Assembly: GCA_910575585.1 (NCBI GenBank)
Contig: CAJTGF010000007.1
Span: 1 to 64,000 of the forward strand
DNA: 64,000 bases
Direction of reading: 5' to 3'
From: Clostridiaceae bacterium
GTDB lineage: Bacteria; Bacillota; Clostridia; Lachnospirales; Lachnospiraceae
A model generated the notes under the pieces. That model was not told the DNA's origin, made no database searches, and was given only the letters and a program-made list of their open reading frames with translations. The translations under genes were made by a program, and so were the position numbers. Below are positions 43,850 through 50,551 of the stretch, piece after piece (within the stretch, counting starts at the first letter, position 1; every line of letters starts with the position of its first letter).

Positions 43850-43895
43850 TCTTGTGTTACATGTATTATTTGACAATTGAAAAGTACGTATATCC

Positions 43896-44011
43896 CTTAT
43901 TCAGAGTGATGGAGATACAAAGGATCTGTGAAGTCACGGCAACCCCCGGCAGGTACGCGAAAGCATACAGGCCAGGAAGGTGCCAACCTGAGCGAGAAAT
44001 CGAACAATAAG
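43896..44011 (+). promoter_or_regulatory. SAM-I (S-box) riboswitch
   Basis: Binds S-adenosylmethionine in the metK leader. P1 is CTTATT (43896-43901) with AATAAG (44006-44011). The conserved cores are visible: CAGAGTGATGGAGA after P1, CACGGCAACCCCC, and AAGGTGCCAACCTG before CGAGAAATCG. The 3' end leads into a terminator, so high SAM should stop transcription before metK. Confidence 0.93.
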
Positions 44012-44032
44012 AGGATTTGATGTAAAGTGATC

Positions 44033-44064: not shown

Positions 44065-44094
44065 GTGCCTAAATGATTCCAAGGAGGAAAAGTG

Positions 44095-45285
44095 ATGGAA
44101 AGATTATTATTTACATCTGAGTCCGTGACAGAAGGACATCCGGATAAGATGTGCGACGCGATCTCCGATGCCATTCTGGACGCGCTGCTGGAACAGGATC
44201 CTATGAGCCGCGTGGCCTGTGAGACTGCGGTGACCACAGGCATTGTTATGGTCATGGGAGAGATCACCACCAAGGCATATGTGGATATGCAGAAGATTGT
44301 CCGCGAGACCATCCGCGAAATTGGCTACGACAGGGCAAAATATGGTTTTGACTGCGACACCTGCGGCGTTATCACGGCCATTGACGAGCAGTCCACAGAT
44401 ATTGCCATGGGCGTGGACAAAGCTCTGGAGGCAAAAGAGAACAAGATGAGCGACGCGGAGATCGAGGCCATCGGAGCAGGCGACCAGGGTATGATGTTCG
44501 GTTTTGCCAGCAATGAGACAGAGGAGTACATGCCGTATCCCATTGCCCTGGCCCACAAGCTGGTGCTGCAGCTTACCAAGGTGCGCAAGGACGGCACGCT
44601 TACCTACCTTCGCCCTGACGGCAAGAGCCAGGTGACCGTGGAGTATGATGAAAGCGGCAAGGCAGTGCGCTTAGACGCCGTGGTCCTTTCCACCCAGCAT
44701 GACGAGAACGTGACCCAGGAGCAGATCCACGCGGACATTAAAAAGTACGTGTTTGATCCGGTGCTTCCCGCGGATATGGTGGATGAGAACACAAAGTTCT
44801 TTATCAATCCTACCGGGAGATTTGTTATCGGCGGACCTCACGGGGACAGCGGACTGACAGGAAGAAAGATCATTGTTGATACATACGGCGGCTATGCCCG
44901 TCACGGCGGCGGCGCTTTTTCCGGCAAGGACTGCACCAAGGTGGACCGGTCCGCAGCCTATGCGGCCAGATACGTGGCAAAGAACATCGTGGCGGCAGGT
45001 CTTGCGGACAAGTGCGAGATCCAGCTTTCCTATGCCATCGGAGTGGCGCAGCCCACATCCGTTATGGTGGACACCTTTGGCACCGGCAAGGTAAGCGACA
45101 GCCGTTTGGTGGAGATCATCCGTGAGAATTTTGACTTAAGGCCGGCAGGCATCATCAAGATGCTGGATTTAAGGAGACCGATCTATAAGCAGACCGCAGC
45201 TTACGGCCATTTCGGGAGAAATGACCTGAATCTGCCTTGGGAGAAACTGGACAAGGCAGAGCTTTTAAAAAAATATCTTGGCTAA
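44095..45285 (+). CDS. metK: S-adenosylmethionine synthetase
   Basis: Makes SAM from methionine and ATP. The 396-residue protein shows [13 protein letters not shown] at the start, [10 protein letters not shown], and the phosphate loop [12 protein letters not shown] 44095 follows GGAGGAAAAG; a GTG just before it is less likely. Feedback-regulated at transcription by the riboswitch upstream. Ends at a strong bidirectional terminator shared with lepB. Confidence 0.97.
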
Positions 45286-49668: not shown

Positions 49669-49721
49669 GTGATATAGGGATTGATGTATTGTTGAGTGAG
49701 TAAAGTCGGGGTTGTGGCGGA

Positions 49722-49887
49722 GCCAGGGAGGGAAGGGAGGCATGGCGCCGACCGGGTTCAGATATGCCAGACATTGCGATGAGCCCAAAGCGGAAAACAC
49801 TCGGGGTTAGGCCCTCCTGTTTTCCTGGTCTCATCTCCATGGCATATATTCACCCGTCCGGTGCCATGCCTCCCTTCCCTCCCTGGC
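49722..49887. repeat. Long hairpin element, copy 1
   Basis: Arms GCCAGGGAGGG... (49722-49746) and their perfect 25-base complement (49863-49887) enclose a core (49753-49856). The core folds on as ATATGCCA/TGGCATAT, GATGAG/CTCATC and GGAAAACA/TGTTTTCC around an apical GGGGTTAGGCCC. The core recurs in reverse complement at 50360-50466, about 90% identical, with different outer arms. The flank AAAAGCAGAATTCGC (49888-49902) also recurs there. Coding potential is absent. Confidence 0.85.
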
Positions 49888-49902
49888 AAAAGCAGAATTC
49901 GC

Positions 49903-50320
49903 TGGCTGGGGTTGCTTGCTTAAGATGTTTCCGATAGGGGGAGATGTTTTAACTGTGCAGCGAAAAGATATGTGTTTTATTGGCAGTAATCGTTTGTGTA
50001 TCGCATTTATGGGAACAAATCCGGCTTCTATAATTTTTATGTCAGTCAATGCCTGCGTTGGCTGGCATATTTTTTAATAGCTCGTATAAAAATGCGAAAA
50101 ATGTGGGGTTCTTATGGTTTTTTATTGCTGTATACCCAAAGGGCATGCCGGAATGCAGGCTTCTTCGGAGCAGGGACACTGCCCATTGGAGGGTATGCAT
50201 ACATAAAACTCGAATATGCCGCTTTGCGAAAGGATCCAAACATTGCTATTGGTTTCAATCTTACAGGTAGCCGTTTTCTAACCAGTCAGGAATAACATTC
50301 GGCCGGCTAAATTTAAGCTG
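49903..50320. other. Gene-free interior between the two hairpin elements
   Basis: About 420 bases with no convincing gene. Short frames exist on both strands (up to about 99 codons at 49996-50295) without ribosome sites. A hairpin with T-run (ATGCC 50049-50053, GGCAT 50064-50068, then ATTTTTT) could terminate a plus-strand transcript starting near the first element. Confidence 0.4.
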
Positions 50321-50335
50321 GCGAATCCTGCTTTT

Positions 50336-50490
50336 ACCCATGAGGATCTGTGTGCTGTCCGGGTGAATATATGCCATGGAGATGAGACCAAAGAAAACAG
50401 GAGGGCCTAACCCCGAGTGTTTTCTGCTTTAGGGGCTCATCGGAATGTTTGGCATATTTGAACCCGGACAGCACACAGATCCTCATGGGT
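50336..50490. repeat. Long hairpin element, copy 2 (inverted)
   Basis: Arms ACCCATGAGGATCTG... (50336-50364) and their perfect 29-base complement (50462-50490) enclose the same core as copy 1, in reverse complement (50360-50466). The flank 50321-50335 is the complement of AAAAGCAGGATTCGC, one base different from copy 1. On the other side both copies share GTTGT and GGAG shortly before the arm. The arm sequences of the two copies are unrelated. Confidence 0.85.
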
Positions 50491-50551
50491 CTCCAACAAC
50501 GTCGCCTAAACAATCCCCCTAACAGCTTACAAACACGCTCTAGAGCGAGTC

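What the first reader, a model, noticed from the sequence alone, without database searches (positions are those of the whole stretch)
49708..50515. Two long hairpin elements with a shared core but unrelated, perfectly paired outer stems
The copies at 49722-49887 and 50336-50490 have cores of 104 and 107 bases that are about 90% identical (in reverse complement). They share a 15-base outer flank (AAAAGCAGRATTCGC) and traces of the other flank (GTTGT, GGAG). Between core and flank, the outer arms are completely different (25 and 29 bases), yet each is perfectly complementary to its own partner. Normal divergence would not replace a stem and keep it perfect. This implies either strong selection for pairing (structured RNA) or a mechanism that copies one arm from the other or from a target, as in hairpin-based mobile elements. 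I cannot match it to a known RNA or repeat family.
Basis: partly seen in the sequence, partly recalled or inferred. Interest (0 to 1): 0.88.

Follow-up and report, generated by a model that had tools for sequence, protein, structure and literature searches.

The report
Drifting-arm hairpin transposon of gut bacteria
The two hairpins are the ends of an old copy of a mobile DNA element, of a kind I found no description of, whose hairpin centre is strongly conserved in a family of gut bacteria while its outer arms drift yet stay matched to each other, which suggests that one arm is repeatedly copied from the other.

Summary
The hairpins (49722-49887, 50336-50490) are the convergent ends of one old insertion between glgB and an mscS gene, missing in three sister genomes. 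The genome (Hungatella, Lachnospiraceae) holds 46 and 48 copies of the two element ends; 33 double-hairpin loci were read. One element sits exactly inside another copy's core, which shows mobility. Young copies follow TTAG and end GGGTTAG, IS200/IS605-like. IS200-type tnpA lies between hairpins in two degenerate loci and one intact locus, and beside one in a fourth. A core covariance model finds the hairpin in 20 of 397 Lachnospiraceae genomes, 18 of 334 genera. Core loops are conserved. Arms fall into classes or, in one Eisenbergiella, differ between most copies (66-161 nt; 16 of 21 with 2-5 mismatches); related arms change in concert. G.T mismatches are rare and not clearly commoner than A.C, which points to arm-to-arm copying at DNA level rather than RNA function. 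The two hairpins of a locus never share arms (0 of 33). The mover is unsolved: 9 of 20 carriers lack Y1 transposase.

The parts
49677..50516 (.). whole two-hairpin element, old copy; extent is where similarity to other copies ends
   Evidence: BLAST extents against other copies (right limit from the L148 hit); absent between the two genes in G010, G011 and G005
49711..49716 (+). 5'-foot tag GTTGTG of hairpin A
   Evidence: GTYGTG lies upstream of 10 of 34 chosen hairpins from 8 genomes, 0 of 34 at the mirror position
49722..49751 (+). hairpin A, 5' outer arm
49752..49856 (+). hairpin A, conserved core with internal loops
   Evidence: 93% identical to core B; covariance model
49857..49887 (+). 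hairpin A, 3' outer arm
49888..49902 (+). conserved 3' flank AAAAGCAGAATTCGC, on the inner side of the element
49903..50320 (.). middle of the element; partly shared with other double elements; no Y1 transposase recognised
   Evidence: 72-73% alignment to L009 and L010 across the element; ORFs listed; PF01797 search of the genome gives no match here
50321..50335 (-). conserved 3' flank AAAAGCAGGATTCGC of hairpin B
50336..50359 (-). hairpin B, 3' outer arm
50360..50467 (-). hairpin B, conserved core; nearly the same sequence as the host core interrupted in L036
50468..50490 (-). hairpin B, 5' outer arm
50495..50500 (-). GTTGTT, possible 5'-foot tag variant of hairpin B
   Evidence: sequence

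Best explanation
The finding is an old, non-autonomous transposable element with one long hairpin at each end, pointing inwards. Each hairpin belongs to a family widespread in Lachnospiraceae with a conserved core (a stem broken by internal loops, presumably a recognition site) and free-drifting outer arms. SHOWN: the family is dispersed and mobile. SHOWN: arms of one copy change together while arms of different copies diverge. INFERRED: this is because replication, or repair of the extruded hairpin, copies one arm from the other (template switching on a quasi-palindrome), so mutations are either erased or doubled; only the loops are held by selection. INFERRED: in Hungatella the element moves as single-stranded DNA by a Y1 (HUH) transposase acting in trans and inserts 3' of TTAG. 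INFERRED: the two ends must keep different arms, so that each hairpin folds locally and the element does not become one long palindrome prone to deletion.
For: Mobility: L036 is a 631-bp element inside another copy's core; the joined host matches window core B at 85 of 86 bases across the junction, no gap. The window site is empty in G010, G011 and G005. Ends: of 23 rows with both ends (two rows share one right end), 22 finish in TTAG and 19 have TTAG on the left. Concert: Eisenbergiella L381 vs L384, 24 concerted and 2 unconcerted stem columns; L344 vs L376, 20 and 7. Of 21 G156 copies with arms of 66-161 nt, 16 have 2-5 mismatches; both arms of L344 lie inside the insertion relative to the G451 empty site. 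DNA level: 105 hairpins of the Hungatella type, WC 2742, G.T 6, A.C 16; beyond five bases from the core, WC 2341, G.T 6, A.C 9 (107 hairpins); 55 hairpins across genera, WC 1730, G.T 39 (17 at one loop-closing position), A.C 16, with all four Watson-Crick types at 18 or more of 34 pairs. Different arms per locus: similarity 0.22 vs 0.47 on random re-pairing, 0 of 5000 as low. Deletion derivatives (L119-L121) exist. IS200-type TnpA lies between hairpins in L143, L148 and L177 and beside one in L146. A strand-specific 5' tag GTYGTG is enriched.
Against: Y1 transposase (PF01797) is absent from 9 of 20 carrier genomes, two of them single-contig (G280, G429). Only 4 of 58 Y1 loci have a hairpin in the stretch held, all Hungatella. 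The IS200 copies without hairpins do not have TTAG next to their left end. A 4-bp TTAG duplication is not excluded; left and right tetranucleotides differ in 5 of 23 rows. In G007, G022, G224 and G440 the core sits in a MITE with terminal repeats, and 11 copies share 10-13-base words at the two junctions; in Eisenbergiella it sits in bare hairpins without either. So one mechanism does not cover the family. Same-strand neighbours occur in other genomes (L234, L266; L398). Low arm similarity within loci partly reflects inheritance of a few heterodimeric elements. Five of 21 G156 copies have 6-18 mismatches. Compensation by selection alone, without copying, is not formally excluded.
Confidence: 0.55

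Rival explanations
1. Structured non-coding RNA: the hairpins are transcribed and selection on base pairing produces the compensatory changes; the two copies are paralogous RNA genes.
For: Conserved internal loops and apical motif; 23 of 34 pairs with changes on both sides; the covariance model reaches genera not used to build it (best E 4.9e-29 in G440). In the cross-genus set G.T (39) exceeds A.C (16), although 17 of the G.T fall at one loop-closing position (22 vs 14 without it).
Against: No Rfam 15 family at gathering threshold; below it plant miRNA precursors and a few other low scorers. In Hungatella-type arms G.T is not commoner than A.C (6 vs 16; 6 vs 9 beyond five bases from the core). 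A fixed T.C mismatch is carried by 25 class-1 hairpins. Copies lie next to unrelated genes.
Confidence: 0.12
2. Mobile hairpins whose arms stay matched only because mispaired copies cannot transpose (selection on the single-stranded DNA hairpin), without physical copying between arms.
For: Same data as the copying model; the internal loops next to the core stay unpaired in the copies read, so not everything is corrected to perfect pairing.
Against: The eight G156 copies have arms of 90-145 nt with 0-3 mismatches, far more pairing than recognition should need; a 3-nt length change is matched on both arms (class 1 vs 1'); both matched states exist on either side of transversion mismatches.
Confidence: 0.22
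3. DDE-type MITE: all versions are moved by cut-and-paste transposases; TTAG is a 4-bp target duplication in Hungatella, and 10-13-bp duplications occur in related genomes.
For: Terminal repeats near YAGGYAATTGCGAAAC and shared junction words of 10-13 bases in 11 copies (L226, L229, L230, L238, L246, L262, two in L263, L310, L337, L338) among the 25 loci scanned, some of them the same copy; TTAG on both sides in 18 of 23 rows of young Hungatella copies.
Against: The outermost 40 bases of the two Hungatella ends are not inverted repeats of each other, though both share a subterminal segment next to the hairpin foot; left and right tetranucleotides differ in 5 of 23 rows; no terminal repeat or consistent duplication in Eisenbergiella.
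Confidence: 0.2

Closest known systems
REPIN (inverted REP doublet mobilised by RAYT/TnpA_REP)
   Same: Two inverted imperfect palindromes as one non-coding mobile unit; multi-copy; conserved mismatch within the stem; strand-specific tag at the 5' foot; Y1 transposase relatives nearby in Hungatella (PMC3116915: abstract and passages; PMC8266576: passages).
   Different: Hairpins of about 150-400 nt here, against REPs described as 20-40 bp (abstract of PMC3733652 in a search listing); tag GTYGTG not GTAG; arms differ between the two ends; the TnpA scores as IS200 and not as RAYT; 9 of 20 carrier genomes lack Y1.
IS200/IS605-derived non-autonomous elements (PATEs)
   Same: No terminal inverted repeats at the outermost ends, no long duplication, insertion 3' of a tetranucleotide, subterminal hairpins, tnpA present in relatives (PMC7290912: passages).
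   Different: Two giant hairpins inside the ends; no autonomous element with the same ends found.
Template-switch maintenance of hairpins (quasipalindrome correction)
   Same: Explains concerted multi-base changes in both arms with few G-U intermediates (PMC8794818: abstract and one section).
   Different: Described there for RNA genes; here arms up to 161 nt in mobile elements, with loops spared.
Long perfect inverted repeats in Nematomorpha mitochondrial genes
   Same: Near-perfect arms far longer than any obvious need (PMC6649704: abstract and outline).
   Different: Coding; not described as mobile in the abstract.

Membership tests
REPIN / REPtron | inverted doublet of palindromes as the unit | tested here: met
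   33 convergent double loci in the own genome and no other order within 1.3 kb except one hairpin called twice; pairs also in G280 and G401; but single hairpins in many genomes, and same-strand neighbours in L234, L266 and L398
REPIN / REPtron | GTAG tetranucleotide at the 5' foot | tested here: not met
   GTAG was not scored as such; no such tag is visible in common in the flanks of 45 hairpins (by eye), and a different tag, GTYGTG, is in 10 of 34
REPIN / REPtron | associated RAYT-type transposase | tested here: not met
   L177 TnpA: NF033573 138 bits (cut-off 55), NF047646 26 bits (cut-off 80); no Y1 in 9 of 20 carriers
IS200/IS605 non-autonomous element | insertion 3' of a tetra- or pentanucleotide without duplication | tested here: inconclusive
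   L036 exact nested site fits but a 4-bp TTAG duplication would look the same; left and right differ in 5 of 23 rows
IS200/IS605 non-autonomous element | subterminal hairpins, no terminal inverted repeats | tested here: met
   Outermost ends differ; CCGG-TTTAT-CCGG one base before TTAG
IS200/IS605 non-autonomous element | autonomous relative with the same ends and tnpA | tested here: not met
   tnpA between or beside hairpins in L143, L146, L148, L177, but the IS200 ends differ from the element's ends; the largest end-to-end span encodes a collagen-like ORF
Rfam structured RNA | match above a curated threshold | tested here: not met
Structured RNA, general | excess of G-U over A-C mismatches in stems | tested here: inconclusive
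   6 vs 16 in Hungatella-type arms, 6 vs 9 beyond five bases from the core; 39 vs 16 across genera, 22 vs 14 without one loop-closing position
DDE MITE | terminal inverted repeats and fixed-length duplication | tested here: not met
   Not in the Hungatella double element; met for 11 copies of other carriers of the core

The most novel reading that the evidence does not exclude
A mobile element defined only by a structured core: the mobilising machinery recognises the hairpin's internal loops and cuts wherever the palindrome ends, so no terminal sequence is conserved, and the arms are rewritten from each other in every copy. In one Eisenbergiella genome 21 such bare hairpins with arms of 66-161 nt were read, without shared ends or consistent target duplications.
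Probability: 0.3. Interest if true: 0.85.

Novelty: new variant of a known kind. Interest (0 to 1): 0.7.

Why it matters
It is a natural experiment on how long palindromes survive in bacteria: dozens of copies with arms of tens to over a hundred bases that diverge between copies yet stay matched within each. It makes arm-to-arm copying measurable in genomes, and it shows that covariation, usually taken as proof of RNA structure, may arise at DNA level. It may also point to an unknown transposase that reads a structured hairpin core.

Tried and rejected
Rfam at both thresholds: nothing on the hairpins above a gathering score. Arms as duplicated host DNA: rejected for L344, where both arms lie inside the insertion. 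Shared arms: BLAST of eight arms against nine G156 loci found only the arm's own locus, but alignment then showed diverged homology for some pairs. Autonomous TTAG element: none found; the 4.1-kb span in L126 encodes a collagen-like protein and L122 shows no recognisable transposase among its ORFs by eye. IS200 relic as driver of the TTAG ends: the IS200 copies' own left flanks are not TTAG. Plasmid and phage records: no match. Viral contigs: one pattern match, judged chance. Exact empty junction for the window copy: flanks too diverged. Joined-flank search of other insertions: the two loci aligned were too diverged to place junctions. Literature: seven term searches listed no paper whose title or abstract start describes this family; some of them were aimed at other points, and the library lacks most subscription papers. 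L288 and L290 (one genus) match the model but show no outer arm in my pairing, so they are doubtful. The G.T/A.C test has no outside RNA control. The GTYGTG tag was chosen after looking at the flanks, and the 34 hairpins tested were my choice (most Hungatella and all Eisenbergiella copies left out). The order-wide search lists only same-family genomes by name, so I cannot say that the family stops at Lachnospiraceae.

Full report
WHAT IS THERE. Both hairpins are present as described: cores 93% identical in reverse complement, shared AAAAGCAGRATTCGC flank, and outer arms perfectly paired over 25 and 29 bases. They lie between glgB (ends 49668) and an mscS-type channel gene (starts 50633). The sister genomes G010, G011 and G005 have the two genes adjacent without the element, so this is one insertion of about 840 bp, not two independent RNA genes.

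A REPEAT FAMILY IN THE GENOME. A whole-genome search gave 156 BLAST matches. I fetched 40 regions including the window's own and 20 more. Oriented flanks show that young elements have two different ends, one starting ACCCTTAAGAACG after TTAG, the other finishing GGTTTATCCGGGTTAG; both share a subterminal segment next to the hairpin foot. Pattern searches with up to three mismatches found 46 and 48 of them, against 0 in the reversed controls. Of the 23 rows with both ends (two rows share one right end), 22 have TTAG on the right (one GTAG) and 19 on the left (TCAG, TTAT, ATAG, ATAG otherwise); the next right base is G in 22. L036 is a copy inserted in the core of another copy: with it removed, the host matches window core B at 85 of 86 bases across the junction without a gap. 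That shows movement, and an insertion with no more than TTAG in common, as in IS200/IS605 elements, although a TTAG duplication would look the same.

TWO ENDS, DIFFERENT ARMS. I collected 33 distinct convergent pairs in the own genome; among neighbouring hairpins less than 1.3 kb apart no other order was seen, except one hairpin called on both strands. Arm similarity within a locus is 0.22, against 0.47 (sd 0.05) when hairpins are re-paired at random; none of 5000 shuffles is as low, 0 of 33 pairs exceed 0.6 where 10.2 are expected, and the cores are 0.80 similar. Shared descent of a few heterodimeric elements contributes, so the shuffle overstates independence. In other genomes same-strand neighbours occur (L234, L266; L398). 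Short derivatives of 269-324 bp, in which half-hairpins are fused or one hairpin is lost (L119, L120, L121), fit deletion between the inverted ends. A hybrid with unmatched arms exists (L214).

A FAMILY ACROSS LACHNOSPIRACEAE. An exact pattern scan of the species-genome collection hit 45 stretches, 38 titled Hungatella; of the other seven, five hold true cores (L231, L233, L248, L255 and L257, the last Eisenbergiella porci) and two look like chance (L228, L241). A covariance model from 24 cores (A1; 34 pairs, 23 with changes on both sides) found the hairpin in 20 of 397 genomes of the family (18 of 334 genera), 15 of the 20 with two or more matches, and in 13 of 392 genomes of the order, all 13 in the same family. 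That is 28 different genomes. An earlier BLAST search of 61 relatives hit 10, one of them (G052, another family) a 26-base match that looks like chance. Two of the 28 (G061 and G385, one genus) are doubtful because no outer arms were found. That G156 is an Eisenbergiella rests on its sharing a genus with G448, whose contig C13 has the length and hairpin of the E. porci record.

ARMS DRIFT, PAIRING STAYS. In G156, 21 copies with arms of 66-161 nt were read; 16 have 2-5 mismatches, including constant ones beside the core, and five have 6-18. No arm of the first eight loci matches another of the nine loci by BLAST. The sister genome G451 has an empty site for L344, so both arms came with the element. 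Some copies have recognisably related arms: L381 and L384 differ at 24 stem columns in which both arms changed and at 2 where they did not; L344 and L376, 20 and 7; L376 and L382, a poor pair, 23 and 18. Median arm identity over the 253 pairs of 23 copies (21 of G156, one each of G451 and G448) is 0.51. Not every genome behaves so: the five G367 copies and the four G224 copies read share their arms. In Hungatella about five arm classes occur, with matched states on either side of transversion mismatches and a 3-nt length change matched on both arms.

DNA RATHER THAN RNA. In 105 of 112 Hungatella-type hairpins (seven dropped because the arm start was not found) the arms have 2742 Watson-Crick pairs, 6 G.T, 16 A.C and 116 T.C mismatches. 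In a recount on 107 hairpins, 86 of the 116 T.C lie within two bases of the core and 25 are one class-1 mismatch; beyond five bases from the core there are 2341 Watson-Crick, 6 G.T and 9 A.C. Across genera (55 distinct of 60 matches; four opposite-strand shadows and one duplicate dropped) there are 1730 Watson-Crick, 39 G.T (17 at one loop-closing position), 16 A.C and 70 other cells, on an alignment fitted to the model. Two-step compensation in rRNA goes mostly through G-U (78.5% in PMC8794818, section read). Here such intermediates are scarce, which fits template-switch copying between arms. Selection for pairing of the DNA hairpin remains possible, and the cross-genus G.T excess leaves some room for RNA.

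WHAT MOVES IT. In Hungatella, IS200-type tnpA lies between the hairpins in two degenerate loci (L143, L148), beside one in L146 near a contig start, and intact in L177 of G005, where the second hairpin has a broken arm. Against a general role: Y1 genes are missing from 9 of 20 carrier genomes, two of them single-contig, and 54 of 58 Y1 loci examined have no hairpin in the stretch held. Elsewhere the same core sits in a MITE with terminal repeats near YAGGYAATTGCGAAAC; of 25 loci scanned (some the same copy) 11 copies share words of 10-13 bases at the two junctions, while others share 4-9. In Eisenbergiella the hairpins have neither feature consistently. A tag GTYGTG lies within 25 nt of the 5' foot in 10 of 34 chosen hairpins from 8 genomes, 0 of 34 at the mirror position, and in 49 of 7264 background stretches. 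It was chosen after inspection, but its strand bias resembles the GTAG of REPs (PMC8266576, passages).

COMPARISON. It works like a REPIN or a PATE but meets only part of either definition (see membership test). I found no description of a family with this core: Rfam 15 has none at threshold, seven literature searches list none, and plasmid and phage records hold no match.

Noticed in passing
window 43894-44013: SAM riboswitch (61 bits) upstream of an ORF at 44092-45285 that reads like S-adenosylmethionine synthetase (by eye); ordinary.
   Followed up: no
L214 1963-2084 (G005:C90): A hairpin with unmatched arms (class 4 left, class 1' right), apparently a recombinant between copies.
   Followed up: partly
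L119, L120, L121, L123, L133: Compact derivatives in which half-hairpins are fused or only one hairpin or its arms remain.
   Followed up: partly
G280 (single contig), nine best hairpins: All nine scored hairpins lie on the + strand, although two have an inverted partner; the bias is unexplained.
   Followed up: no
L126 2618-4657 (G000:C19): Long collagen-like (GPTGPTG) ORF beside a hairpin copy.
   Followed up: no
L122, beside the hairpin element at about 2600-2800 (G000:C34): A different small repeat with inverted ends (ACTAGTATAACCCGTTTTAAATA) next to a hairpin element (locus L107).
   Followed up: no
L245 6313-6455: A core with about 58 extra bases between its two conserved halves; looks like another insertion into a core.
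   Followed up: no
L344 (G156:C4): 8-bp direct repeat GGGCGGCC around the element, a possible duplication, not seen consistently at other copies.
   Followed up: partly
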